Assembly: GCA_002868945.1 (NCBI GenBank)
Contig: PKTX01000067.1
Span: 1 to 36,408, forward strand
Reading direction: 5' to 3'
DNA from: Desulfobulbaceae bacterium
GTDB taxonomy: Bacteria; Desulfobacterota; Desulfobulbia; Desulfobulbales; SURF-16
DNA: 36,408 bases
Positions 1-36,408 of the stretch are shown in pieces. Numbering within the stretch: position 1 is the stretch's first letter; every line of letters begins with the position of its first letter. Position numbers and translations under genes: made by a program. Under the pieces are notes generated by a model. That model was not told the DNA's origin, did not search any database, and was given only the letters and a program-made list of their open reading frames with translations.

Positions 1-9
1 CTTTGCCAT
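1..9 (-). CDS. Start of an unidentified gene running off the left edge
   Basis: On the minus strand the last readable codons are ATG GCA AAG (Met-Ala-Lys). They are preceded by AAAGGAG at a normal Shine-Dalgarno distance (about 15-21). The rest of the gene lies outside the window, so its product cannot be named. Its promoter probably lies between here and about position 100, which carries no other convincing gene. Confidence 0.5.
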
Positions 10-243
10 TGTTTTGCTCCTTTCTGTTTGAAATTAAGTTAACAGATTGGAACGGCATTTTCACTTAACGACCTGTCCAGTTTTCCCCGACCAGCTCTCT
101 GCGAACGGTCAGAGTAAAATTTAATCCAAAAGGCGGTTGATGCTCTGTCATCTTCCGCCTTTTCTGTTTTTAAAGAGGCTGGCCCGGCCCTGACCACAAC
201 TCCAGCACCTCTACCAGCCGATACCTCAGCCAAAGCAAGCAAG

Positions 244-282
244 AGCCGCCATCCACTAAAGACAGTGGTTGGCGGCTTTTTT
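244..282 (+). terminator. Rho-independent terminator
   Basis: A stem with arms AGCCGCCATCCACT and AGTGGTTGGCGGCT (one mismatch) around a short loop is followed at once by a run of six T. The T run is on the plus side, so it would stop plus-strand transcription. No convincing plus-strand gene precedes it in the window, so it may be the relic of a lost gene. Confidence 0.7.
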
Positions 283-598
283 GTCTGCTATGTTGCATAA
301 AATTCCTTATGTAACATGGGCGTGGCCGTCAGGCCGTACCAAGCTTGGCCGCATTTTACATAAGAAGATTTTATGCGGGCGAAGCCCCGGCATCACATGG
401 CGCAGCCGCCGGACATAGCCTGCACCAAAAGATGACAACCACATACCATGAACCCCTTCGAGGGGAGGTAAGCGAAACGAAGTGGAGACTCCGTTGGGGT
501 GATCCTCTAAAGCCGGATTACGGATAGCGAAGCGGAAGACGCAGCAGTTCGCGGCTGCAGCCGCTAGCCGGAGACCTTCCACCTCTCTTTCTCTGTGA
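283..598. other. Non-coding, palindrome-rich stretch
   Basis: No credible gene is seen. The stretch begins with a palindrome (290-317, ATGTTGCATAA / TTATGTAACAT). CTTATGTAA and GCATAAAAT then recur in inverted form at about 350-379, giving nested inverted repeats around a GC-rich core. A further hairpin, ACCCCTTCGAGGGG, lies near 450-463. Short open frames on both strands here read like translated non-coding DNA. This could be a mobile-element end or a structured RNA; nothing decides between them. Confidence 0.4.
290..317. repeat. 28-bp palindrome
   Basis: ATGTTGCATAA, six bases, then TTATGTAACAT: the arms pair with one mismatch. The CTTATGTAA half is repeated in inverted form about 45 bases further on, so the same right arm can pair with either partner. 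This could be a protein-binding site or an element end. Confidence 0.5.
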
Positions 599-861
599 TT
601 ATGGGAAGTAGCGGTAGATATCCCGCCGGTGAAGTGCCCGGATGAAAATGACCAGGTCATTCTCGACCTTGATGCCTATGCGGAAGTTGCCGAAGCGAAT
701 CCGACAATAGTCACTCTAAGTTTTTTGAGGTTGGCAACCCCGGAAAGGTCGGCGGCCTGCTCAACTTCCTCGATGACCTCTTTAACGCGATCCAGAAAGT
801 CTTTGTCCTTTCTGCGTGCGCGTAAATTCTTGGCAAAGCTGTTTCTGAACTCCGTTTTCAT
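599..861 (-). pseudogene. RelE/ParE-type toxin, frameshifted
   Basis: The first frame starts with ATG at 861 and reads MKTEFRNSFAKNLRARR, continuing to LKKLR near 705, then runs out of frame to a stop at 676. The neighbouring frame continues the family sequence with DYCRIRFGNFRIGIKV and ends HRRDIYRYFP at 599-601, the normal C-terminus of small RelE/ParE mRNA interferases. The 263-nt span lacks one base of a complete 88-codon frame, and the break sits next to a run of six A. The start overlaps the antitoxin stop as ATGA. Either the toxin is inactivated, which is common for this class, or there is a homopolymer sequencing error. What is seen is the two-frame homology; the toxin function is family knowledge. 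Confidence 0.75.
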
Positions 862-1022
862 GCAGAGTCTTCTTTGCCGTCCAGAATGTCGAAAATCTCC
901 TTCCTGCTGGCAGAGCCGGAAGACTCACCCTCCTCAATGGCCCGAACCATGGCAAGGTCTTCCATGGCCTGCTTGAAGAGATCCTTCAGCTTACCGTTGT
1001 CGATCGACATTGTTTCCATCAT
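858..1022 (-). CDS. Small antitoxin of a RelE-type TA module
   Basis: A 54-residue acidic protein starts MMETMSIDNGKLKD and ends EIFDILDGKEDSA. The C-terminal pattern (A.VRAIEEGE.SG.ASR.EIF..L.G) is that of small antitoxins partnered with RelE/ParE toxins. The ATG at 1022 overlaps the TGA of the upstream regulator (ATGA). It follows an AAAGGAGGT site at 1026-1034; a second ATG at 1019 has slightly better spacing and cannot be excluded. The gene is translationally coupled on both sides: regulator to antitoxin to toxin. Confidence 0.65.
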   Translation of the reverse strand: MMETMSIDNGKLKDLFKQAMEDLAMVRAIEEGESSGSASRKEIFDILDGKEDSA

Positions 1023-1378
1023 CTTACCTCCTTTCCTGCCAACTCCTGAAAGCAATACTTCAGGATAACAAGATCAAGTATTTCCTTGGCAAGCTCTTTT
1101 TCCTTCTTGCAAAGGGTATCTACCATCTCAAAGCGTCTTAGCAGCTCCCGATCCTGAACATTGAGTTTGGCGGGGCGGCCCTGTGGCTCAAAGGCCAGAT
1201 AATCAAGGGTCACATCAAATGCTTCGGCCAGCCTGATCAATATATCTGTGGAAGGCAAGTTTACGCCACGTTCATAGGCTGACACCTGCTTTTGGTGTAT
1301 CCCCAACCTCTCGGCAAGCTCGGCCTGAGTCCAGTGTTGTTCCTGTCTTAACTGCCTAATTCGTTCTGAAATAGTCAT
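1019..1378 (-). CDS. XRE-family transcriptional regulator
   Basis: A 119-residue protein with a Cro/C1-type helix-turn-helix in residues about 3-58 (ISERIRQLRQEQ, TQAELAERLGI, then QVSAYERG) and a helical tail rich in Lys and Glu. It is the first gene of the operon and overlaps the antitoxin gene by four bases. It probably represses the operon, as XRE proteins do in many toxin-antitoxin loci. The start ATG at 1378 has a weak GAGGG site nine bases upstream. A third regulatory gene besides antitoxin and toxin is less usual than a two-gene module. Confidence 0.85.
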   Translation of the reverse strand: MTISERIRQLRQEQHWTQAELAERLGIHQKQVSAYERGVNLPSTDILIRLAEAFDVTLDYLAFEPQGRPAKLNVQDRELLRRFEMVDTLCKKEKELAKEILDLVILKYCFQELAGKEVR

Positions 1379-1379
1379 A

Positions 1380-1770
1380 TTTGTTGCCCTCGCATGTGAT
1401 CAAGATAACTTTTTCGTTGAACTGTTCGACAAGGTAGGCTTCAAAGAGGCCGTGACCATGCTGGAGTCTGCAACCTTCCCCAAGAGATCAGCCAAGACCG
1501 TAGCCAAGAAGAGTAAGGAATAGCGGTTACAGATAAAAAGCTGCTGGCCGGGGGGGTGATTATTATCAGCATACCTTTGTAGAGGACAGTCGAGGCCCGG
1601 ACTACCTCAAGAATCGAGGCATCACCGACCACCAGAGCCAGAAAGACTTCGGGGCCGGTTTTATGACGGCAACAAATCAGAACAGTCCTGAGCGGTCCCT
1701 TTTACCTTCTTCCTTGCCGGCAGCTCCTGCTTACATACCATCCCACCCTGCCTCACTGACCAGCTCATAA
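1380..1770 (+). pseudogene. Remnant of a CHC2 zinc-finger/DNA primase-like gene
   Basis: One frame (1380-1523) reads DQDNFFVELFDKVGFKEAV followed by a Lys-rich tail. This matches the region after the CHC2 zinc finger of primase-like proteins (typically GGD...FV...VSFKEAV..L). After a stop, a second frame contains KLLAG. After a frameshift in the G7 run at 1550-1556, a third frame reads DYYQHTFVEDSRGPDYLKNR and GITDHQSQKDFGAGF, the pattern that links the zinc finger to the TOPRIM part in DnaG-like and CHC2 proteins (DYYHQT...YL.KRG). The N-terminal finger and the TOPRIM domain are missing. It abuts the xre gene, so the TA operon may have truncated it. The family call comes from remembered motifs, not a search. 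Confidence 0.5.
1403..1432 (-). promoter_or_regulatory. Possible promoter of the xre/TA operon
   Basis: On the minus strand TTGTCG (1427-1432), an 18-base spacer and TTATCT (1403-1408) resemble a sigma-70 promoter about 25 bases upstream of the xre start. It lies inside the primase-like remnant. This is pattern matching only. Confidence 0.3.
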
Positions 1771-1794
1771 TAATAATAAAAGGCAACAATTTCT

Positions 1795-1852
1795 GTTGAC
1801 AACTTGCGCGGCGGAAATATATTTGAGCAGTCAACTATTAAGGAGTCAACTA
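1795..1852. promoter_or_regulatory. Putative MarR operator repeats
   Basis: GTCAAC occurs twice as part of a direct repeat, AGTCAACTA (1829-1837 and 1844-1852). It also occurs once inverted as GTTGAC (1795-1800) over the -35 box. The copies straddle the promoter and the ribosome-binding site, the expected place for autorepression by the MarR protein encoded just downstream. The function is inferred from position. Confidence 0.4.
1796..1823 (+). promoter_or_regulatory. Sigma-70 promoter of the marR-efflux operon
   Basis: TTGACA (1796-1801), a 16-base spacer and TATATT (1818-1823) form a near-consensus promoter 29 bases upstream of the MarR start codon. It is the strongest promoter match in the window. 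Confidence 0.7.
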
Positions 1853-2316
1853 TGACCAATTGCCTTCAATACCATGAAGATCTGCCCCTCTCACGGTTGA
1901 TCTATCACACGGCCCATGCCATGAAGATTGTTGCGGAAAAGCTGCTGAAGCCCTATGACCTGACCATTGAGCAGCTTTACCCCCTGAAAATCCTGGCCAC
2001 CGAACCGGGCCTGAATCAACGGCAGATCGGTGAACAGTGCAGCAAGACGCCCTCCAACCTGACCCGCATCCTGGATCGTCTGGAGAAAAAAGAGCTGATA
2101 GAACGGCGCCGTGATCCCCATGATCGCCGCACCACCCAGATCTTTCTCACCTCCCGGGGCAAAACCCTGCTCACTGAGGTGACCGGTATCCTTGACGGAT
2201 TCTCCGAACGCATCATAGAGGGGATCAGCATGGCCGACCGGCAGATCACCAAATCCTCCTTAGACACAATAGTCCGCAACATCAAGGCATTAGAGTTTAA
2301 AAACCAACCCTCCTGA
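1852..2316 (+). CDS. MarR-family transcriptional regulator
   Basis: A 154-residue winged-helix regulator. The DNA-binding part includes LNQRQIGEQCSKTPSNLTRI followed by LDRLEKKELIERRRDPHDRR, the typical recognition helix and wing of MarR, and the ends are helical for dimerisation. The start is the ATG at 1852 with AAGGAG six bases upstream; an upstream TTG at 1804 lies within the promoter and is unlikely. It is the first gene of an efflux operon, with the adaptor gene 13 bases downstream. MarR proteins usually repress such operons until a small aromatic or toxic ligand binds, so self-regulation through the GTCAAC repeats is likely. The ligand is unknown. Confidence 0.9.
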   Translation: MTNCLQYHEDLPLSRLIYHTAHAMKIVAEKLLKPYDLTIEQLYPLKILATEPGLNQRQIGEQCSKTPSNLTRILDRLEKKELIERRRDPHDRRTTQIFLTSRGKTLLTEVTGILDGFSERIIEGISMADRQITKSSLDTIVRNIKALEFKNQPS

Positions 2317-2329
2317 ACGAGACCTCACC

Positions 2330-3385
2330 ATGCGAATCATCACCAGTATCGCCCTTGCCTTTCTTGTCCTGGCCCCCTCCTCGGCAGCGGCCCAGGAACA
2401 GCCGCCGGCCAAGGTGGTTGTCAGCCAAGTTTCTGAAAAAGAGGTGGCCCAGAACCAGGCCATGATCGGTACCCTCTACTATGACCGGGTGAGCCGTCTC
2501 TCCAGTGAACTTGCCGGTCTGGTAGCCGCGGTGCATGTCCGTGAGGGTGACCGCGTTGACCGCAACGCCGTGCTGGTTGAACTGAACACCGACATCCTGG
2601 ACACGGAAATCAAACTGACCGAGACCCGTATTGCGCAGATCGCCCTGCGCATCGAAAATGCTGAGAAAAACCTGAAACGTCTGGAACGACTCCATGCCCA
2701 GGAAGGTGTCAGCGAAAAGGATTACGAGGATTCCCTGTATGCCTATCAGGATCTGGTCAAGGAAAAGCAGGCCCACCAGGACATTCTGACAAAGCTGCAG
2801 ATTCAGAAGAAACGCAGCCGCATCAGAGCCCCGTACGCCGGTGTCATCCTCAGCAAGGATGTGGATGTGGGCGCCTGGGTCAGTCAGGGCAAGGAGATTG
2901 TCGGCATTGCCTCCAGCCGCGACCTCTTTGTCAAGGTGCCGGTGGGCGAGAGCATGCTGCGTCACATCACCATCGGTGCCGAGGTGCCGGTGCTGATCAA
3001 CGCCTATGACCGGCAACTCATCGGTACTATCCAGGCCATTGCCCCGGTGGCGGATGCCCAGACCAAGAACGTCTTCTTAAAGATCAACATTGCCGATCAG
3101 GATGACATTGCCGTCAACATGTCGGCCACCGTGCATGTGGCCACCAGCCCGGCCAGAAAACTTGCCATCATTCCCCGCGATGCCCTGGTCCGGAACCAGG
3201 GTCGCACTTTCATCTACACCATCAAGGAGGGCAAGGCGGCCATCCTGCCGGTGAACATTGTCGCCTTTCTCGGCAAAGAGGTGGGAGTGGATAATGCCCA
3301 TATCGTGCCCGGCATGCCGGTGGTCATTGAGGGCAATGAACGTTTACGTCCCGATCAGGCCGTCGAGGTAAGCGGAGAGCACTAA
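2330..3385 (+). CDS. RND efflux periplasmic adaptor (HlyD/AcrA family)
   Basis: A 351-residue membrane-fusion protein that bridges the inner-membrane pump and the outer-membrane channel. It has a Sec signal peptide (about residues 1-21, ending SSAAAQ) with no lipobox cysteine, so it is probably a soluble or loosely attached periplasmic protein. Next come a biotinyl-lipoyl half (LAGLVAAVHVREGDRVDRNA), a long alpha-helical hairpin with coiled-coil character (about residues 80-155), the second lipoyl half (SRIRAPYAGVIL) and beta-barrel and membrane-proximal domains. Its stop TAA shares one base with the ATG of the pump gene, so the two are translationally coupled. Length is normal for the family. 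Confidence 0.92.
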   Translation: MRIITSIALAFLVLAPSSAAAQEQPPAKVVVSQVSEKEVAQNQAMIGTLYYDRVSRLSSELAGLVAAVHVREGDRVDRNAVLVELNTDILDTEIKLTETRIAQIALRIENAEKNLKRLERLHAQEGVSEKDYEDSLYAYQDLVKEKQAHQDILTKLQIQKKRSRIRAPYAGVILSKDVDVGAWVSQGKEIVGIASSRDLFVKVPVGESMLRHITIGAEVPVLINAYDRQLIGTIQAIAPVADAQTKNVFLKINIADQDDIAVNMSATVHVATSPARKLAIIPRDALVRNQGRTFIYTIKEGKAAILPVNIVAFLGKEVGVDNAHIVPGMPVVIEGNERLRPDQAVEVSGEH

Positions 3386-6300
3386 TGGATATTATCAAAA
3401 GCTCCATAGAAAAGCCGGTGGGCATCGCCGTTGCCGTCATCCTGGTGGTGATGTTCGGCATCATCGGTCTCAACAAGCTGCCGGTCCAGCTTACCCCGGA
3501 CGTGGAAACCCCGGAGATCACGGTGAATACCACCTGGGCCGGCGCCACTCCCTATGAGATCGAAAAGGATATCATCGAAAAGCAGGAGGAGGTCTTAAAG
3601 GGGTTGCAGGGTCTTACCGAGATGGAAAGCGCCAGCTACAACAGCTATGGCGAGATCTCCCTCTCCTTTGAGCTGGAAACCGATATTGACGACGCCCTGC
3701 TGCGTGTCTCCAACAAGATGAACGAGGTCTCCAACTATCCGACCAATGCCGACAAACCGGTGATCGAGGCGGCCGGCGCCAGCAGTTCACCGGTGATCTG
3801 GATGATGCTGAAGACCAAGCCGGAGAATCCGCAGCACATCAATGAGTTCAAGACTTTTTTTGAAGACAATGTCCGCCAGCACCTTGAGAGGGTAAAGGGC
3901 GTTGGCTCCCTCTTTGTCTTCGGCGGCACGGAAGACGAGCTGCAGATCACCCTGGATGTCGAGAAGATGGCGCGCCACCAGATCACCATCAACCAGGTGA
4001 TCCGCGCCGTGCGCCAATCCAACTCCACCATCTCGGCCGGCACCCTGGGCATCGCCAAGAAGAATTACCGCATCCGCACGGTGAGCCAGTTCCAGTCGCC
4101 CATGGAGGCCTTGAACGTCGTTCTTTTTGATGACGGCAGCAAGCGCGTCTATCTCCATGACGTGGCGCAGGTGGCCAAGGGCTATCGCAAGGAAGATGTC
4201 TCGGTGCAGCATAGCGGCGACCAGGTTATTGTCTGCGGTGTCCGCAAGGAGCAGGGTGCCAATGTGCTGACCCTGACCGACACCCTCGAAGAAAAGGTCA
4301 ATGAGCTCAACCAGGGCCTGCTGGCCGACAATGACCTCTACATCAAATGGGTCTATGATCAGCGGCCCTACATCAATACCGCCATCAAGCTGGTAAAGCA
4401 GAATGTCCTGGTGGGCGGCAGCCTGGCCGTCTGCGTGCTGCTCATCTTTCTGCGCAGCCTGCGCACCACCATTACCACGGCCATTGCCATTCCCATATCC
4501 GTGACCGGCACCTTTATCTTTCTGTGGATCATGGGCCGCAACCTCAATGTTGTTACCCTGGCCGGTATCTCCTTTGCCGTGGGCATGCTGGTGGATAACG
4601 CCATTGTCGTGCTGGAAAACATCGACCGGCACCGCAAGATGGGCAAGCCTGCCAAGGATGCCGCCCTGGACGGCACCAAGGAGGTATGGGGGGCAATTCT
4701 GGCCTCCACCGCCACCACGGTGGCCGTCTTCCTGCCTGTTATCTTCATGCAGGAGGAGGCCGGCCAGCTCTTTCGCGATATTGCCATCGCCATCACCTCT
4801 GCCATCCTGATCAGCCTCTTTGTGTCGATATCGGTGATCCCTTCTGTTTTCCACCTCTTTTACCGGAATCAGAAAAACAGCCTGAAAGAGGTAAAGAAAC
4901 ATCGCTTCGGCAGTCTCTTTGTCGACCTGTTCATGAAAGTTGCCGACTTCTGCCTGCGCAACAAGGTCACCCGACTGGGCACCGTGGTGCTGCTCACCAC
5001 CTTTTCCGTTAGCCTGACGGCTCTGCTCATGCCGCCGGCCGAATATCTGCCCCTGGGCAATCGCAACCTGATCCTCAACATCCTCATGCCGCCGCCCGGC
5101 TATTCCGTCGACAAGCTCAAAGAGATGGGCGACTATATCTACGACGAAATTGAGCCGTACATGCAGGAAGATGAAAAGGACGGCATTCCACGGGTCCGCG
5201 ATATCTTTTATGTGGGGGCCGATCGCATCAACCTGTTCGGCGGCATCTCGGCCCATGAAACCAGGGCTGCGGAGATGATCCCCCTCTTTCAACGGATAAT
5301 CGACTCCATCCCCGGCATCTTCGGCATCAGCCTGCAGGCCGGTATCTTTGAAACCGGTCTGGGCGAAGGCAACAATATTGATATCAATATATCCGGCACC
5401 GACATCGACGCCATGATCAATGCCGGCCGCACCCTGTTCGGCACGGTGGGCCAGAAGATCCCCGGCGCCCAGGTGCGGCCCATTCCCTCTCTGGAAACGA
5501 GCTATCCGGAGGTCAAGATCATCCCCAACAAGGAGAAACTGGCTGCAAACGGCCTCACCGAAGAGGACCTCGGCATCTATGTGGATATCCTGATGGATGG
5601 CCGCAAGATCGATGAATATCGCCCCGAGGGCATCAAGCAGGTGGATATGGTGGTCAAGGGCAAGGAGACCCTCTTCACCACGCCGGAGGCCATTCTCGAC
5701 AGCACCATTGTCAACAGCTTCGGCCAGCTGATCCGCATCAGAGATGTCGCCGATCTCCAGTATAGCCAGGGCATGCCGCAGATCAACCACCTGGAGCGCC
5801 TGCGCACCATTACCCTGCAGGTCACGCCGCCACGGGGTCTGGCCCTGCAGAGCGCCATGGAGACGGTGGAAAAGGATATTGTCGGCGCCCTTAAAAAAAG
5901 CGGCGCCCTGTCCGAGGTAACAGTGGCGGTGGGTGGTAATGCCGACAAACTGACGGAAACACGGCTGGCCTTGCAGTGGAATCTGCTCTTGGCCCTGATC
6001 ATCACCTACCTGCTCATGTCCGCCCTTTTTGAGAATTTTCTCTACCCCTTTATCATTCTCTTTTCCGTGCCCCTGGCCGCGGCCGGCGGTTTTGTCGGCC
6101 TGAAAATGGTGGATTTCTTTATTGCGCCCCAGGGTTTTGATGTGGTGGCCATGCTCGGCTTTATCATCCTGATCGGCACGGTGGTCAACAACGCCATTCT
6201 CATTGTCCACGTCTCCCTCAACAACGTGCGCTACTACGACATGCAGGGCGTGGCTGCCATTTCCGATGCCATCCAGACCCGTATACGGCCCATCTTCATG

Positions 6301-29797: not shown

Positions 29798-30726
29798 GGG
29801 GTCAGGTCTTGAAAAATCAGTTTTTACCCTTGAGGCATACAATCTTGCTGATCGTAGTGTAATGCAGTCCTATAACATCGGCTATATCCTTCAGGGTATA
29901 GCCATATTTCAGGTGGGCATCGCAAATCCGTTGATTCCGAACCTCCTTGTCACCCTTGCCCACATCGCTGAAATACTGAGCCAACTCCGGTCGGTCCGGA
30001 TAGCGCTGCGACCTGGGAATCTCGCCGATCTCCTGCCTCTCGCCAAGAAGGTCCCTCATTTGGGTGACAAATTCGCCACTTCCCAAAAAAATCTGGCCGG
30101 AGAGTCTTTTCCACGGACTCTCCTCTTTGCCACTGATGCCGGCGAGCACAAACTCTCTGTACAGCCTCCTGGCCCGAGTTCTCTTGGTCGAGAACTGTGC
30201 CAATACCCAGTCAGTGGTCAAAAAGTCGGGAACCGCTTTTCCGAAAGCCGTGGCCTGGTAACTACTCCATGGCCAAGAGGAAGGGCTCCCCACCATGCGG
30301 GCACGTACGGGATTGAGAACGACATACCGACACAGTTCCAACAAGTGGGTATTCTTCTCGACCACAATGGCCTTGTAGCGCCCCTGAAAAACATGGCCAA
30401 CTCGTTGATGGGCACGGTTAAAAGCTTGGGTATAGACGCCGTTGAGGTGCCGCATACCAAGAGAGAGGTTGGGGTCGGGAGTTTCGACAACCAGGTGGTA
30501 GTGGTTGTCCATCAGGCAGTAGGCGTGACAGAGCCAATTGTACTTGGCCACGGTCATCGCGAGGATGCCGAGAAAGCAATAGCGGTCCTGCTCTGTGACA
30601 AAGATCGCCTGCTGCGCATTGCCGCGCGACGTGATGTGATACAGTGCGCCGGGATATTCAACTCGGAGTGGACGGGCCATACAGAAACGATAGCACCAAA
30701 AAACTAATTTTTCAAGACCTGACCCC
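29798..30726 (-). mobile_element. RAYT element with 28-bp inverted ends
   Basis: The transposase gene is enclosed by GGGGTCAGGTCTTGAAAAAT... at 29798-29825 and its inverted copy at 30699-30726. The two 28-base ends differ at one position. A third copy, a perfect match to the inverted left end, lies at 30883-30910. The left end covers the stop codon of the transposase. Such flanking repeats are typical of REP-associated tyrosine transposases (RAYTs). Confidence 0.75.
29817..30680 (-). CDS. REP-associated Y1 transposase (RAYT, IS200-like)
   Basis: A 287-residue single-strand HUH transposase. MARPLRVEYPGALYHITSRG is the signature N-terminus; the HUH motif is His60-Tyr-His62 (MDNHYHLVV), and the probable catalytic tyrosine is Tyr119 (RYVVLNPVRA). 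The C-terminus carries a helix-turn-helix (YTLKDIADVIGLHYTTISKI) that standard IS200 TnpA lacks. RAYTs process REP hairpins and are often domesticated single copies. The stop lies in the left inverted repeat. Both ends are complete, so the gene appears intact. Confidence 0.9.
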   Translation of the reverse strand: MARPLRVEYPGALYHITSRGNAQQAIFVTEQDRYCFLGILAMTVAKYNWLCHAYCLMDNHYHLVVETPDPNLSLGMRHLNGVYTQAFNRAHQRVGHVFQGRYKAIVVEKNTHLLELCRYVVLNPVRARMVGSPSSWPWSSYQATAFGKAVPDFLTTDWVLAQFSTKRTRARRLYREFVLAGISGKEESPWKRLSGQIFLGSGEFVTQMRDLLGERQEIGEIPRSQRYPDRPELAQYFSDVGKGDKEVRNQRICDAHLKYGYTLKDIADVIGLHYTTISKIVCLKGKN

Positions 30727-30728
30727 GG

Positions 30729-30864
30729 GCAGACCGGTCATCGCGAAGATGCCAGAAGAGAAAAGGCGGTCCTGGTCGGTGACAAAGATCCCCTGCTGCA
30801 CATTGCCACGCAACGTGATGTGATACAAAACGCCGGGATATTCAACTCGGAGTGGACGGGCCAT
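30729..30864 (-). pseudogene. Truncated second copy of the RAYT 5' end
   Basis: The frame from ATG 30864 reads MARPLRVEYPGVLYHIT, then LRGNVQQGIFVTDQDRL, clearly homologous to the first 40-odd codons of the intact transposase, then diverges. Together with its copy of the 28-base end it forms a tandem repeat of 184 bases (30544-30727 versus 30728-30911). The substitutions between copies show that the duplication is not recent. Confidence 0.8.
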
Positions 30865-30932
30865 ACAGGAACGATAGTACCAAAAAACTGATTTTTCAAG
30901 ACCTGACCCCGGGAAGAATGCTACCCCTCATA

Positions 30933-33900
30933 CTAATAAAGCCCAAAGCCATGCTCTTCATCTCGCTTTGATTCTTCAATTATTTGCCGGTTTATATATG
31001 CAATATGATCTTTAACCCAGCGCCTTACATTAGAATTTTCATGTTCAATCAAGGGGCTTAGTGCTGATTTATCTGATTCTAGGTAGGGTACTAGAGACCC
31101 TGACCAACCACGGGTTCCCATATTAGCGCTCAGTTCACTCGCTACCCGTTGGTCATTTCCAAAGTTCTCAAGCAAGGCGATAAACAAAGCCGAAGGCTGT
31201 TGCATCTCATCAACTGTTTCGATGACATTTAAACAACGGGCAACAAAAATTGGGCCAATATCTGGTTGCTTTAAGCACCATTCCATAACGCTTTCAACTG
31301 GAATAACAGAAAGTACACTTGGCACATTTCCTACCAAACTTGTTTCCCTATCTAAGAGCTGCTGTAACCAATACTTATCCATCCCTTCAGCTCGAACGAT
31401 AGCCTCACCAAATATCGGCCAGATTACGTCACCATAGTCGCTCATTAGGTTTAACATTAAAGGTTTGGTATAAGACCAGATATCACCATGATTTAAGCCG
31501 AATTTACTCGCTGCAATTAACTGATTAGTTAGCGCAACCGCAAACTCTTCATCTCGCTCTTTTAATAGCTTTTCAGCCATGTCATGCCAATGGTGTGTAT
31601 CTGTTGCAGTGTTCTCTTGCCCTTTATGTAAAGGTACGGCTGTGACTAAATACTTAAGCTGATCTCTTAGCACATTGACGCTGTCTTTATTGCTAAAACA
31701 ATACATATAAATCACATTGAGTGCGGCCCAGCTGGCCTGATCGCCCAGCTCAGCTAACTGTAGGCAAAAACCGGCGATCACATCCGGTTCAATGCTGTCA
31801 GTCACACTGCCATAACTCAATGCATTCGCGCTATTTGGCGATAACACACCTCGCTGAATGAGCTCCAGTAGAACATCTAAATGTGTCTTTTTGATATCAC
31901 CCGTTCGTATAAAATCTGGATAAAGATGAACCAACTTCTCATCCGTAACTAACCGACCGATATTCTCTTGCCAAAGCTCTGGCGACTGCTCAAACAAACC
32001 TCGATATAAACCTAAAACTAACCGAGAGTCAGGCTTTTCAATGGCTGCTAAGCGCTCTAGAGCCAAACCAAGTATTGGCACAACATCAGTTAAGTCATGA
32101 GCCAGTTGGTGTCCAAAAGCGTATGACTGCTTTTGCTCTCCCTGTAACAATAAGCCAAGGTGAGGGAGTAGTTCTTCAATATTATGGGAGAGCTCTGTCG
32201 CAAGTACTTTCGCATTCTCTGCTGCCACATCAACGTAGTGACCATCCTCACCTTTATGATGTTCCCAGGGAGGATTGGTTACCAGAATCTTTAACTTCTC
32301 AGGCAGTTCTGCTTCATCGGGGCTTAGCAGCTCTAACCAGTTATTCAGCACATCAGTCACTTCTTGCTTGATATCTACTGAATCATACTCAAAAGTTTTT
32401 TTGATGCTGTCTAGAGCTTCTGGCCAATAGCGGCCATTGATACTTACGACCTTCCTAATCGCCGAATCCAACATTTCAATCCGGCCACGAGCAACAAAGC
32501 CCCGAATTGAATGACCTATATCTGACAGGACTTTTTCTTTTTGTGCATCGCCCCGCTCAAAAAGAACCAGCATCAAATCAAAAGCTTGTTGCCAGAAATC
32601 AAAAATATCTTGCCATAGCTCTGGTCGCCACTCTTCAAGCGGTGCTTTAGTCCCCTGATACTCAGCCCCAACAGTTCGTGTGCCTCCATAAGTACTGATT
32701 GCTTGACCTAAAGCCTCAAGAACGACCATATCTATATCGGTCTGATTAACTGCAATAGCCCGCTTTAAGATATCAAAGCGAATATTAGGCTTCGCTTGCG
32801 TTCCAGATAGATTCACTCGAAATAACTGAGCAAACATGCCGGTTGCATTGTTGCTCCAACTTTCATTTTCAGCTGATGCCAGCAACAACATACACCATGC
32901 TGATTTTTCAAATACATCCTTATGAAAACACAGCTTTTCCAATGCCCATACTAGGTTTCTTCGCGTGTCACCATCTATAGCCTGAAGTTGATCATGACTA
33001 TACTCAGACAAAACTCTGTATAAAGCATTGCTCGTTGACTCGGGGTTCACCTCAACAAATGCGCGGAAGAGTTTCGAACCCCTTTCTGTAAGCAGCCCCT
33101 CCGCTTGGACAAAAGGGCTTTGCCCTCCAAATAGTTGATCTGAAAATCTTTGAACATTCGGCTGGTCATCAAGATATGAAGCCTGAGTACAAAAACTCTG
33201 CATTAAGGAATCGGGGAGGGTATCAATTAGCTGCTTTTGACGATCATATGACGCTTCCTTCCACCATTCTGACGCCAGTGTCAGTGCCAGCGGCTTAGGT
33301 ACCAGTCTTGCGTACCGCCCCCCGCGATTTATGACTTGCCGACGGGTAAATATTTTTAATACTCTGTCAAATATTTTTAGGTCAGACCCAGCAACATCTT
33401 CCGCAATATATTTAGCCTCTTCGCCGGCTGTACCAAAGACATCGAACAAGGAACAAGCAGATAACATTTCCTTCTCAACATCTGTTATACCACCGTCACC
33501 ATCGATCAATTTTCTTACGACAGAGCTACTTTCTATCGAACCAAGCAATCGGCCCTCTTTCTGATACTGCTCTGCGATTAGAGTAGCCATAAGAGGATAA
33601 CCCTGAGCAAACCGAGCTACACGATCAACATCACTCGAATCCATTCCAACTAATATTGGGGACAGGACCTGCTTTATGGCCTCATCTGACAATGGGGAAA
33701 GTTGAATATGAATAGATTCATCAACCTGTTCATCTGAATAGCCAACTGTAACAAGTTTTAGTAAGCAATCTGTTTTATTGGCCTCCTTCGCCAAATGGTT
33801 GTGCAAATCAATATTACAATTTTCAATTACTACCAAGCCATGAACACGATCTTCAACCATTGCCCGAATACTTTCTTTAATTGTGGTGTCGTAACCAGGT

Positions 33901-34820
33901 GCATCAAAAATAAGAACGCAGGAATCATCGATAGAACTAGATGCATCAATAGCTTCTAATAATAAGCGTGTTTTACCTAATCCAGATGCGCCTGTTAGCC
34001 TTATCACAGCTCGTTCTAAATCAATAGCAGCAACAAACGACTCAAAATCATTTGTTCGCGTTTCATCAGTCGCATAATGATAACTATGATTTCTTTCTAC
34101 ACTTTTCCAGTCTTCAAGGTCTCGTGAGGCAGTATTTTTATACCTGTTTACGGTATTTTCTTCCAAAATAAATTTTTTAAAAACAATATATGATGATGAT
34201 TCCATACTTTCTGGTTTAACAATTGTGCAGTGATCAACATCGTTAATTGTTTCAACCTGATGATGCCTGAAAATACTCTTTGAACTAGAAGAAGATACAA
34301 TATCGTCATTTGCAGCGACAATACTCATAATTTCCAGAGCATTGTCCAACTCACTATCTACCCACTGATCATTTAAATCATCGAGTTCGCTGGAATCACG
34401 ACACAAACTTTTAAGATGCCGATTTCTAAATGAAATATACTTGCCAACATTTGCGAACCCTGACCCATCATGTGGAACGGCAAAAAAGCATACTTTTCTG
34501 ATTTTATGGTTTATTTTTTTATCCTTCATGCGAAGGAGAAGTTTTTTAACCACTAAGCCACCCAAACTATGGCCAGCAAGAATAATTTCATCGTTATCCA
34601 AGTCACACCGAGCTTTTATATCGGTGAGTAGGCCATTTGCTATATTAAGAATACTGGGGGCACGCTGATAAAATTGTTTAAGTATATGGGGCGACTGATA
34701 GCCATATGAAACAATGCTGTAATCAAGGTCATTGTCCTTTTCCAAGAAATCTGGAAAATCCCCCCATGTTCCGTCGGAGGTACCGCCTAATCCGTGGACG
34801 AGTATTATTTTTTTTCCCAT
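30933..34820 (-). CDS. Alpha/beta-hydrolase-STAND NTPase fusion (putative defence)
   Basis: A 1295-residue protein. Residues 1-215 form an alpha/beta-hydrolase (lipase/esterase, DUF676/PGAP1-like): HGLGGTSDGTW for the oxyanion region, nucleophile Ser85 in GHSLGG, a probable acid at Asp172/173 and His197 (VDHCTIVKP). Residues about 255-560 are a STAND-type P-loop NTPase with Walker A GASGLGKT (277-284), a Walker-B-like strand LVVIEN (329-334) and a winged-helix-like segment. The rest, about 700 residues, looks like helical repeats that could sense a ligand. Effector-NTPase-sensor order is that of NLR-like immune proteins (for example Avs), and hydrolase-type effectors occur in fungal NLRs. The role is inferred. 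The gene is AT-richer than its neighbours, with a weak ribosome-binding site. Confidence 0.85.
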   Translation of the reverse strand: MGKKIILVHGLGGTSDGTWGDFPDFLEKDNDLDYSIVSYGYQSPHILKQFYQRAPSILNIANGLLTDIKARCDLDNDEIILAGHSLGGLVVKKLLLRMKDKKINHKIRKVCFFAVPHDGSGFANVGKYISFRNRHLKSLCRDSSELDDLNDQWVDSELDNALEIMSIVAANDDIVSSSSSKSIFRHHQVETINDVDHCTIVKPESMESSSYIVFKKFILEENTVNRYKNTASRDLEDWKSVERNHSYHYATDETRTNDFESFVAAIDLERAVIRLTGASGLGKTRLLLEAIDASSSIDDSCVLIFDAPGYDTTIKESIRAMVEDRVHGLVVIENCNIDLHNHLAKEANKTDCLLKLVTVGYSDEQVDESIHIQLSPLSDEAIKQVLSPILVGMDSSDVDRVARFAQGYPLMATLIAEQYQKEGRLLGSIESSSVVRKLIDGDGGITDVEKEMLSACSLFDVFGTAGEEAKYIAEDVAGSDLKIFDRVLKIFTRRQVINRGGRYARLVPKPLALTLASEWWKEASYDRQKQLIDTLPDSLMQSFCTQASYLDDQPNVQRFSDQLFGGQSPFVQAEGLLTERGSKLFRAFVEVNPESTSNALYRVLSEYSHDQLQAIDGDTRRNLVWALEKLCFHKDVFEKSAWCMLLLASAENESWSNNATGMFAQLFRVNLSGTQAKPNIRFDILKRAIAVNQTDIDMVVLEALGQAISTYGGTRTVGAEYQGTKAPLEEWRPELWQDIFDFWQQAFDLMLVLFERGDAQKEKVLSDIGHSIRGFVARGRIEMLDSAIRKVVSINGRYWPEALDSIKKTFEYDSVDIKQEVTDVLNNWLELLSPDEAELPEKLKILVTNPPWEHHKGEDGHYVDVAAENAKVLATELSHNIEELLPHLGLLLQGEQKQSYAFGHQLAHDLTDVVPILGLALERLAAIEKPDSRLVLGLYRGLFEQSPELWQENIGRLVTDEKLVHLYPDFIRTGDIKKTHLDVLLELIQRGVLSPNSANALSYGSVTDSIEPDVIAGFCLQLAELGDQASWAALNVIYMYCFSNKDSVNVLRDQLKYLVTAVPLHKGQENTATDTHHWHDMAEKLLKERDEEFAVALTNQLIAASKFGLNHGDIWSYTKPLMLNLMSDYGDVIWPIFGEAIVRAEGMDKYWLQQLLDRETSLVGNVPSVLSVIPVESVMEWCLKQPDIGPIFVARCLNVIETVDEMQQPSALFIALLENFGNDQRVASELSANMGTRGWSGSLVPYLESDKSALSPLIEHENSNVRRWVKDHIAYINRQIIEESKRDEEHGFGLY

Positions 34821-34918
34821 TTTTAAACTCTAATCTAGTGAACTTTTAGGAAACGATAAAACAATATCGCCCTTCGTTTTCCAGCACACACACTTGGCTG
34901 CCACCGTCGATACCCATG

Positions 34919-35011
34919 GCGCTAAAGGCATATCACTTGCAGCATGCGCGCCCTTGGAATGGAGCCGAAGGCGCAATGGAAAGGGCGTCGCCGTGCCTGC
35001 ATTGGTTAGGC
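34919..35011. repeat. Integron attC-like hairpin
   Basis: GTTAGGC (35005-35011) matches the attC core site GTTRRRY. About 90 bases away, GCGCTAA (34919-34925) is an imperfect partner of the complementary core. Between them lie long imperfect inverted arms (CGCCCTT with AAGGGCG, GCAG with CTGC) that can fold as in attC. On the minus strand the stop codon of the preceding gene is embedded in the core (GCCTAAC), as in many gene cassettes. No integrase is in the window and one core is degenerate. Confidence 0.4.
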
Positions 35012-35752
35012 ATCACTACCGCTCGGCCTTAAATCCATATAAGACAGTATCGCCGGAAGCCATTTCTGAACCAGTCCATATTCAGCTCGAGGCATTTGAA
35101 CCCACATAGCTGAATCATGATTAAGCAAGTCCCGCTCTCGGCAGACAAGAATTCTCGTAGCACTTCCCTTTTCATGTCCACACCATTCTAGGAAGAACCT
35201 GCGAAGAAAATTCGTAGCAACTTCTGCTACCTTCATACCCTCGCTGTGAGACCACTCCCTATTGTCCAAGGCGATCCCAAGCACTTTCGTTGCGCCATAA
35301 TCCACGTATTGGCTCTCACCCTCTCCAACAATCGACCCTGGCTTCATCTTTGGGTGGACGATGTGATCACGAAGTTTAAGAACGTCACTGGCAAGTTGAG
35401 CCTCGCAGCAACCACGGTCAATGTGTTTGCTCGTGCGAGAAAACAGGTAGTAATCAAATTTAGACAACGGAGGCAACCGATCAAGCTCTTCAAGTAGCCG
35501 GGATGGCAAGGACAATGATCCTAAGCAGCTGTTAGCCACACATTCTAGCATCAAGGCTGCATTGGTGATGGCACACCGAGCGAACGCGCTTCCATGCCAG
35601 GCATCCTTCGTTCTTTCACTCTCTTCCAGCAAAAATGCGATATCAACGGCCAGTGTTAAAGCGCGTTGATCGACGAACCGAATGTCTTCTACTTTATTGA
35701 CCATGATGCTTTCTTGTCCTAACAGTGTAATAGGTGAAATCTTGTCCGTCAT
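35006..35752 (-). CDS. Helical protein with a HEPN-like RxxxxH motif
   Basis: A 248-residue, mostly helical protein of no family I can name. It contains LKLRDHIVHPK, with Arg128-x4-His133, the catalytic motif form of HEPN ribonucleases. Helices precede and follow it as in that fold. The start is the ATG at 35752 with AGGGGG four bases upstream. It is the gene upstream of the hydrolase-STAND gene on the same strand, 185 bases away across the attC-like hairpin. It may be a partner RNase or toxin, or an independent cassette gene. Base composition is intermediate. A helical signalling or non-catalytic HEPN role is also possible. Confidence 0.45.
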   Translation of the reverse strand: MTDKISPITLLGQESIMVNKVEDIRFVDQRALTLAVDIAFLLEESERTKDAWHGSAFARCAITNAALMLECVANSCLGSLSLPSRLLEELDRLPPLSKFDYYLFSRTSKHIDRGCCEAQLASDVLKLRDHIVHPKMKPGSIVGEGESQYVDYGATKVLGIALDNREWSHSEGMKVAEVATNFLRRFFLEWCGHEKGSATRILVCRERDLLNHDSAMWVQMPRAEYGLVQKWLPAILSYMDLRPSGSDA

Positions 35753-36408
35753 ATCACCCCCTATAGGTGGACGGGATTTCCACTTATTTCCATATTAAAA
35801 CGGTAAACATGGAAAACTCGCTTGTTTTTTGTCCGCTTATTACATTTTAACGGGTCGGTTTCCACTGATTGCGATATTAAGCGATACTCCTTGAGCCCGT
35901 AAGGCTTGGCTCGGGCCAAGCTCACAAAATGAATTTAGTATTGGTGGTATAGCGGAGTACATAACCCCGCAACGCTACTGCGTAAAGGGCATCCTGACAA
36001 CCCTTTTTCACACGAAACCGGTTTCCCGGATAGCCTGCCGCTCAGGATGATTTGATGAGAAGGCAGGGGGCAGGGGGCAGAGGGCAGAGGGCAGAGGGCA
36101 GAATTCAGGATTCAGAATTCAGGATTCAGGAGAAAAACTTGAGAAGAAGGTGTTCTGGCGTCTGGATTACTGAAGGCTTTTTCAGATTTCTACTGTCTCA
36201 CATGCGGTACGTGAGCATTTTTGGGCCATTTTTCCTCGGTACCCCCTTGAGGGGTGAACGCAGGATTTCCTGGCGCGGTAGTTTTTCACCAGCCTGCCAC
36301 TAAAGTACCTTAACTCAACTTTCTGAGTTGTTTTATCTTACCGTAATATCGTTATAGTTTTCCAATGGCACCGCCCTTTTATTTTGCCGGTGAAGAGTGA
36401 GACGTTAA
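35753..36408. other. Intergenic region with several repeats, no gene seen
   Basis: It contains a degenerate direct repeat (35772-35803 and 35858-35885; shared TTTCCACT, ATATTAA), a seven-pair hairpin GCTTGGC/GCCAAGC (35904-35921), a heptamer array with ATTCAG units (36062-36132) and a weak hairpin with a T run (36312-36334). The 83-codon plus-strand frame over the array encodes low-complexity sequence and is not a gene. Confidence 0.5.
36062..36132. repeat. Tandem heptamer array and ATTCAG repeats
   Basis: Six adjacent heptamers, GGCAGGG twice, GGCAGAG three times and GGCAGAA once (36062-36103), are followed by alternating GAATTCAG and GGATTCAG units to 36132. A shorter ATTCAGGAGTCAGGAGTC block occurs at 20623-20640, so this is a dispersed extragenic repeat type. 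Confidence 0.8.

What the first reader, a model, noticed from the sequence alone, without database searches (positions are those of the whole stretch)
30933..34820. Alpha/beta-hydrolase-STAND NTPase: candidate undescribed defence protein
One 1295-residue chain joins an N-terminal lipase/esterase-like domain (GHSLGG, catalytic His in VDHCTIVKP), a STAND P-loop (GASGLGKT) and a long helical C-terminus. Effector-switch-sensor order is the logic of Avs and other NLR-like antiphage proteins, and fungal NLRs carry a similar hydrolase (SesB-like) as effector. Membrane-lipid or ester hydrolysis on phage recognition is a testable idea. It sits in an AT-richer island beside a transposase.
Basis: partly seen in the sequence, partly recalled or inferred. 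Interest (0 to 1): 0.85.

Follow-up and report, generated by a model that had tools for sequence, protein, structure and literature searches.

The report
Cassette-borne bacterial immune receptor with lipase
A single bacterial protein joins a lipase-like enzyme to an immune-receptor switch and a long sensor, and its gene is built like a mobile integron cassette with near-identical copies in distant bacteria, so it is probably a portable phage alarm; its activity has not been tested.

Summary
The ORF is real: 1295 aa, 30933-34820, minus strand. AlphaFold models show a serine-hydrolase fold at the N-terminus (nearest solved fold: phospholipase PlaB), an NB-ARC/CED-4-like switch, and a long helical-repeat part. 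S85, D172 and H197 lie at the usual triad positions. The switch-sensor part is not undescribed: it matches PADLOC's PD-Lambda-4_A model (4.9e-50). In relatives the same core carries other N-termini: a PD-(D/E)xK-like domain in most (50 of 76), and TIR-, calcineurin- or trypsin-like domains in five.

A 4.0-kb block, 91-94% identical in DNA, recurs in Methyloversatilis, Pseudomonas and Photobacterium with one shared start, next to attC sites in the first two. In the window it follows an attI copy, one other cassette and that cassette's attC. Its own 3' attC is missing; a REP-transposase repeat stands there. The genome has an integron integrase elsewhere. Two nuclease-type sisters have attC-like ends too.

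Antiphage function is inferred, not shown. Neighbourhood enrichment was inconclusive, and no copy was found in the phage, viral-contig or E. coli collections. Verdict: new variant of a known kind.

The parts
30933..34820 (-). Gene for the 1295-aa hydrolase-STAND-sensor protein
   Evidence: purifying selection
34152..34820 (-). Residues 1-223: alpha/beta-hydrolase effector domain (S85, D172, H197)
   Evidence: Pfam; AF2; PlaB Z 21.5; invariant residues; LmuA model
33141..34118 (-). Residues 235-560: NB-ARC/CED-4-like STAND NTPase and following helical domain (Walker A GASGLGKT, residues 277-284)
30936..33140 (-). Residues 561-1295: long helical (HEAT-like) putative sensor
   Evidence: AF2; Foldseek company of HEAT-type proteins (label recalled); PD-Lambda-4_A model
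30915..34936 (-). Cassette body shared at DNA level with three other genera; 5' end is the cassette boundary, 3' end truncated in the window
34928..35013 (-). attC site of the preceding cassette (stop codon of the upstream ORF lies in its first core box)
35006..35704 (-). First cassette gene, about 232 aa within the cassette (ORF as listed 35006-35752, 248 aa, starts inside attI); no Pfam, NCBIfam or PADLOC match
35720..35886 (-). attI region, 88% identical to the stretch between intI and the first cassette on contig C66 of the same genome; similarity ends at CACTGTTA
30551..30917 (.). Two adjoining 183-nt copies (89% alike) at the REP-transposase start, abutting the truncated 3' end of the cassette
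29817..30680 (-). REP-associated tyrosine-type transposase gene (neighbour)

Best explanation
It is an NLR-type single-protein phage sensor of the PD-lambda-4A-like STAND family whose effector is an alpha/beta serine hydrolase, carried as an integron gene cassette. Shown: the ORF, the domain folds as predicted models, the conserved triad positions, different effectors on one core in the family, the attC/attI context, and near-identical copies in distant genera. Inferred: a conserved phage product binds the long helical C-terminus; the NB-ARC-like NTPase exchanges nucleotide and oligomerises like an Avs or resistosome; the clustered hydrolases become active and cleave an acyl ester, most likely membrane phospholipid; the infected cell stops growing or dies before phage release. 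The attI copy upstream is the natural place for its promoter (inferred; no promoter was found there by scan).
For: PD-Lambda-4_A model over residues 264-1290, E 4.9e-50. Core model pLDDT 89.5: Foldseek first hit is Avs3 bound to a phage terminase, E 7.0e-9; VIA Z 20.2 for the NRC4 resistosome and 19.6 for CED-4 over 284 and 296 residues; plant NLRs ADR1 and NRC1 are also found by sequence profile, at weak E 0.0011 and 0.018. Hydrolase: PlaB Z 21.5, next other proteins Z 19.0; PlaB by profile 1.9e-6. S85, D172 and H197 are invariant in 18 of 18 aligned hydrolase-type rows and follow the expected strands. Of 76 N-termini on this core, 50 cluster as PD-(D/E)xK-like, 21 as hydrolase, 2 and 2 in two further clusters, and 1 stands alone. 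Pfam reads those five as TIR-like (one hit to CAP12/Pycsar TIR just under cut-off, the other very weak), calcineurin-like (2, above cut-off) and trypsin-like (1, under cut-off). PADLOC links the window's hydrolase to LmuA, the trypsin-like one to LmuA and Avs2 and the calcineurin ones to a defence effector; the two TIR-like ones match nothing there. Cassette.
Against: I saw no phage test of this protein or of any hydrolase-type relative. PD-Lambda-4_A's own N-terminus is the nuclease-like domain, not a hydrolase. In the wider 22-row alignment the D172 column is not an Asp in the three distant plasmid proteins L008-L010, although S85 and H197 hold in all rows. Neighbour genes in the window carry no PADLOC match, and the wider neighbourhood test was not decisive. 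The hydrolase substrate is unknown; fold similarity does not fix it. Whole-model Foldseek TM-scores to Avs3 are low (0.22), and the VIA rows cover the sensor part barely. The cassette's own 3' attC is missing in the window.
Confidence: 0.62

Rival explanations
1. The protein is a STAND immune receptor, but the hydrolase acts on something other than membrane lipid (a thioester, a protein-bound acyl group, an ester metabolite or a nucleotide-linked ester), causing dormancy by metabolite loss.
For: VIA also ranks TesA thioesterase (Z 19.0), feruloyl esterase (Z 17.9) and other esterases close together; Palm_thioest and DUF676 Pfam models match below their cut-offs.
Against: PlaB stands about 2.5 Z above the next other proteins and is the second best by profile, after a putative lipase.
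Confidence: 0.22
2. Defence against plasmids or other mobile elements rather than phages, or a cassette-stabilising function.
For: Carried by a mobile cassette; homologues of the core occur on plasmids (43 records).
Against: PD-lambda systems were found by phage selection in E. coli (PMC9519451, section 7 and passages read; PD-lambda-4 itself is not named in that text, the naming is recalled); several N-terminal domains resemble antiphage effectors.
Confidence: 0.1
3. A non-immune STAND regulator or housekeeping hydrolase.
For: STAND proteins also include regulators (recalled); 8bob, by its title about regulation of the maltose system, is at rank 30 of the Foldseek list.
Against: Patchy occurrence (5 of 97 related genomes including its own), occurrence in several phyla, and exchange of the whole effector domain.
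Confidence: 0.04

Closest known systems
PD-lambda-4 (PADLOC PD-Lambda-4_A)
   Same: Core 264-1290 matches the 1283-position model at 228-1278, E 4.9e-50; three of four nuclease-type relatives tested match it nearly end to end (L004, L007, L011; L005 only at 222-1011).
   Different: The N-terminal nuclease-like part of the model (positions 4-177 in L007) is replaced by an alpha/beta hydrolase; no partner gene recognised by PADLOC beside it.
Avs (AVAST) proteins
   Same: Effector-STAND-sensor order; Avs3 is the first Foldseek hit of the core.
   Different: No Avs model of PADLOC matches at E up to 1.
Lamassu LmuA hydrolase-type effector
   Same: Hydrolase domain matches LmuA model PDLC03851, E 3.7e-10.
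   Different: The four window neighbours scanned carry no LmuB or other Lamassu match; beside the distant homologue L009 a 203-aa protein matches LmuB weakly (1.1e-4, model 194-279 of 610). Here the hydrolase is fused to STAND and sensor.
Integron gene cassettes with antiphage genes (Vibrio chromosomal and mobile integrons, 2025 reports)
   Same: Defence-type gene between attC sites behind attI.
   Different: About 4 kb, single large NLR-type receptor; no such cassette was named in the passages read (PMC12444791, PMC12409362). The 2025 reports themselves were not read.
Fungal NLRs with SesB-like lipase (named in PMC12881547, passages read)
   Same: Same general logic of a lipase-like effector on an NLR.
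   Different: Relationship not tested here; bacterial, HEAT-like sensor.

Membership tests
STAND / NLR-type NTPase | P-loop NTPase of the AAA/NB-ARC type with following helical domains | tested here: met
   Walker A GASGLGKT; K283 invariant in A2 and in the 58-row core alignment; VIA Z 20.2 NRC4, 19.6 CED-4; weak profile hits to ADR1 and NRC1. No Pfam STAND model above cut-off
STAND / NLR-type NTPase | Ligand-driven oligomerisation | not testable with these tools
   needs protein biochemistry
PD-lambda-4 (component A) | Match to PADLOC PD-Lambda-4_A over switch and sensor | tested here: met
   168.2 bits, residues 264-1290
PD-lambda-4 (component A) | Nuclease-like N-terminus as in the model | tested here: not met
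   model positions before 228 unmatched, hydrolase instead. Hence filed as a relative, not a member
PD-lambda-4 (system) | Any partner gene (suffix _A suggests one) | tested here: inconclusive
   4 window neighbour ORFs and 5 ORFs near homologues scanned, no PD-Lambda-4 model matched; partner definition not seen
Avs (AVAST) types | Match to a PADLOC Avs model | tested here: not met
   no Avs model at E up to 1
Avs (AVAST) types | Recognition of phage terminase or portal | not testable with these tools
   experiment needed
Alpha/beta serine hydrolase | Nucleophile elbow, acid and His after the right strands | tested here: met
   S85 after strand 78-84, D172 after 163-169, H197 after 188-192; invariant in 18 of 18; D172 not kept in 3 distant rows of 22. 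Distances in the model were not measured
Phospholipase | Phospholipid cleavage | not testable with these tools
   fold nearest to PlaB only
Lamassu | LmuB SMC-like partner | tested here: not met
   no LmuB match in the 4 window neighbours scanned; one weak LmuB match beside the distant homologue L009
Integron gene cassette | Discrete unit with shared ends in unrelated surroundings | tested here: met
   start at the same base in L016, L017, L022 and the window; one aligned block per pair at E up to 1e-5
Integron gene cassette | Preceded by attI or another cassette's attC | tested here: met
   window 34928-35013 is homologous to a site between cassette genes in a Providencia integron; attI copy 35720-35886
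Integron gene cassette | Own attC at the 3' end | tested here: not met
   absent in the window beyond 30915; present in L017 and, by inspection, in the nuclease-type L025 and L031. So the window copy is a truncated cassette
Integron gene cassette | Integron integrase in the genome | tested here: met
   C66:39198-40145, 437.7 bits, cut-off 265; 14 of 14 control genomes ring, 0 of 14 over cut-off; not adjacent to the window copy

The most novel reading that the evidence does not exclude
NLR-type phage receptors circulate between bacterial phyla as roughly 4-kb integron cassettes in which the killing domain is exchangeable (lipase-like or nuclease-like) while sensor, switch and cassette format are kept; integrons thus stock and trade complete innate immune receptors, here in a probable Desulfobulbales genome with several scattered attI copies and one complete integrase.
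Probability: 0.5. Interest if true: 0.78.

Novelty: new variant of a known kind. Interest (0 to 1): 0.64.

Why it matters
If true, it gives a way by which large single-protein immune receptors jump between very distant bacteria, extending integron-borne phage defence to a full NLR-like receptor. It also provides a natural experiment: nearly the same sensor with a lipase-like or a nuclease-like effector, so the roles of sensor and effector can be separated. The lipase-like effector would set bacterial STAND proteins beside the lipase-type NLRs of fungi.

Tried and rejected
'Undescribed protein' was rejected: PADLOC names the core. A phage-borne origin was looked for and not seen: two viral-contig scans and the phage records gave no relative; E. 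coli genomes gave none at megablast level. These are absences in those collections at those settings only.

Home-made attC finders were too noisy to use on their own. In the loci scanned the first gave about as many hits as block-shuffled sequence; its L016 hit and one of its L017 hits (each on both strands) sat exactly at the cassette edge, but in the window it missed the site I call attC and reported an unrelated one. A second scoring scheme found 2 of 41 clade ends and 2 of 107 other ends at p up to 0.02, i.e. nothing. The claim therefore rests on shared block ends, on BLAST homology of flanking sites to annotated integrons, on the stop-in-core-box test (4 of 5 loci tested, L051 failing; in the same four loci 4 of 23 core-box-like sites in all follow 150 or more open codons) and on the end-complementarity test. 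Folding of the flanking sites was mixed: z -3.44 (L016), -2.56 and -1.36 (L017, 5' and 3'), -0.95 (window).

Integrase presence does not track the hydrolase type: over cut-off in 9 of 40 genomes, by my count 4 of 18 hydrolase-type and 5 of 22 nuclease-type. None of 12 fetched integrase loci (short flanks) overlaps a homologue locus.

Defence neighbourhood: 128 neighbour proteins (32 of 37 loci; five loci dropped to fit the size limit) hit 135 PADLOC models at 1e-15, against 44 models for 102 control proteins from 17 stretches of the homologues' genomes. The test proteins are longer on average, many models overlap on one protein, only 25 families are listed and per-protein counts are not returned, so I call this suggestive, not enrichment. 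Controls also contained AbiE and PD-T4-6 hits. A Pfam scan of the 128 showed no dominant family (at most 3 members share one); 10 nearest neighbours of four cassette copies were mostly unknown proteins.

A sigma-70 scan of 34700-36000 found 1 site, shuffles 1.7. A search for further copies of the window's attC in its own genome found only itself.

Not in print: my open-library searches named no hydrolase-type PD-lambda-4 relative and no STAND integron cassette in the listings and passages seen. Two main Avs and bacterial NLR papers are not held, so this is weak.
Full report
Observation. The frame at 30933-34820 is intact on the minus strand and codes for 1295 residues. Compared with the closest copies its dN/dS is 0.198 (L016, Methyloversatilis), 0.174 (L017, Pseudomonas profundi) and 0.173 (L022, Photobacterium angustum), with 0.15-0.23 in each of the three parts, so all three parts are maintained. 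The stretch is AT-rich against the rest of the window.

Anatomy. AlphaFold on residues 1-620 (18-row alignment, pLDDT 80.2, pTM 0.60) gives an alpha/beta hydrolase; VIA ranks phospholipase PlaB first (Z 21.5, rmsd 2.6, 210 residues; a second PlaB entry 21.3), the next other proteins at Z 19.0. Foldseek on the same model puts a wheat resistosome and Avs3 first. A profile search finds a putative lipase (5.8e-7) and PlaB (1.9e-6). S85, D172 and H197 are invariant in 18 of 18 rows and each follows the expected strand in the model; distances were not measured. In a wider 22-row alignment S85 and H197 hold in all rows, but the D172 column is not Asp in L008-L010. The core, residues 235-1295 (58-row alignment, pLDDT 89.5, pTM 0.75), gives an NB-ARC/CED-4-like module over model residues 1-322 (NRC4 resistosome Z 20.2, rmsd 3.7, 284 residues; CED-4 Z 19.6) and a long helical repeat part, which the VIA rows hardly test. 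Avs3 with phage terminase is the first Foldseek hit of the core (E 7.0e-9, but TM 0.22). A sequence profile finds plant ADR1 at E 0.0011 and NRC1 at 0.018, both weak.

Family. PADLOC's PD-Lambda-4_A matches residues 264-1290 at E 4.9e-50. The PD-lambda names come from a functional selection in E. coli (PMC9519451: outline, passages and section 7 read; PD-lambda-4 is not described in that text). A later table lists a P-loop NTPase for PD-lambda-4 (PMC10952713, passages). A scan of named genomes gave 67 loci; the related-genome search found 5 of 97, the window's own included; plasmids gave 43 records, 3 of them covering at least 80% of the query.

Effector swap. Among 76 N-termini on this core (two genomes counted twice), 50 cluster as PD-(D/E)xK-like by motif (D-G-G..Q-x-K, recalled), 21 as hydrolase with the window, and three small groups hold 2, 2 and 1. 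Of four nuclease-type N-termini scanned with Pfam, three have no hit at E up to 0.5 and one only chance-level hits; two of them match PD-Lambda-4_A's own N-terminus. Pfam reads the small groups as TIR-like (CAP12/Pycsar TIR 5.9e-5, just under cut-off, for one; very weak for the other), calcineurin-like phosphoesterase (both above cut-off) and trypsin-like (3.4e-4, under cut-off). PADLOC matches the calcineurin ones to a defence effector model, the trypsin-like one to LmuA and Avs2, and the window's hydrolase to LmuA (3.7e-10); the TIR-like two match none. On a quick tree of 70 cores, effector class needs 6 changes in all (least possible 4; shuffled mean 23.0) and the hydrolase 3; long branches meet in places, so exact counts are soft. 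The 12-row hydrolase clade that holds the window is sister to 9 nuclease-type rows.

Integron cassette. At DNA level the window block 30915-34936 is 94.4% identical to L016, 93.7% to L017 and (30927-34936) 90.7% to L022, starting at the same base in all three; in the pairs tested BLAST finds this one block only, at E up to 1e-5. The start reads GTTATATG in L016, L017, L022 and L044, with one mismatch in the window. The site after the gene in L017 matches 634 plasmid records, 1 of them over 80% of the query; the one opened lies after estX in an aadA2-cmlA1 array. The window's own upstream site matches 12 records at 29 places, 1 over 80%; of two opened, one is an annotated integron with integrase and dfrA46, the other, on a Halomonas plasmid, has no integrase in view. 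The L031 site matched one record only. In window, L016, L017 and L031 the upstream gene (167-248 codons) ends with its TAA inside the first core box; L051 fails this test. Complementary 8-base ends, as expected if the cassette circularises, occur in 5 of 21 clade loci and 0 of 48 others; mismatched pairs give 54 of 4272. The window is not among the five, as its 3' end is lost; the four hydrolase loci among them are related and not independent. The fifth, L025, is nuclease-type; it and L031 share a block at 96.0% and have attC-like sites at the 3' end. So both effector versions have been cassettes, but most homologues show no recognisable cassette ends.

attI. Window 35720-35886 is 88% identical over 168 columns to the stretch between intI and the first cassette on contig C66, and the similarity stops at the insertion point. 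The integrase there scores 437.7 bits (cut-off 265; 0 of 14 controls over it). Five copies of this attI stretch exist in the genome; the one on C46 is preceded by much the same bases as the start of intI, so it looks like a remnant platform; the C25 copy ends differently. In gene direction the window thus reads attI, cassette 1 (unknown protein of about 232 aa), attC, hydrolase-STAND gene, then a REP-transposase repeat where its attC should be. The contig ends at 36408, so the rest of the platform is unseen.

Function. Defence is inferred from the family model, from the menu of N-terminal domains, from mobility and from NLR-like folds. Against it, I saw no direct test, window neighbours have no PADLOC match, and the neighbourhood comparison is not decisive. 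Integron-borne antiphage genes were reported in 2025 (seen through passages of PMC12444791 and PMC12409362, which cite those works; the works themselves not read). P4-satellite STAND proteins with exchangeable TIR, SIR2 or nuclease effectors are known (PMC9122126, passages). So the kind is known; the hydrolase version of this family and its cassette form are, as far as my limited searches show, new.

Noticed in passing
window 35720-35886; own genome C50:102386-102558, C46:13394-13560, C66:40204-40371, C25:113089-113254: Five copies of one attI region in the genome, only the C66 copy beside a complete integrase gene found by the search; what follows each copy differs.
   Followed up: partly
L025:7081-11022 and L031:9326-13264: A nuclease-type sister of the protein is 96% identical in DNA between a Methylococcaceae and a deltaproteobacterial MAG, with attC-like sites at the 3' end.
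   Followed up: partly
L007 (Pseudanabaena galeata plasmid), 1-5109: A nuclease-type homologue (49% in the core) lies beside a DNA phosphorothioation-associated gene and a DUF4007 gene, a defence-island-like setting.
   Followed up: no
L008, L009, L010 (Vibrio, Lelliottia, Enterobacter plasmids): About 1375-aa hydrolase-STAND proteins on a separate branch; the one scanned (L008) is much closer to the PADLOC PD-Lambda-4_A model (780 bits).
   Followed up: partly
L075 and L080: Calcineurin-like phosphoesterase fused to the same STAND core in Bacteroidota; N-terminus matches PADLOC PDC-S60 and a defence effector model.
   Followed up: no
L022:13659-15428: The gene after the Photobacterium copy is an AAA_21/AAA_15 ATPase of the kind seen in defence genes.
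   Followed up: no
window 35006-35752: First cassette gene: unknown protein, no Pfam, NCBIfam or PADLOC match.
   Followed up: no
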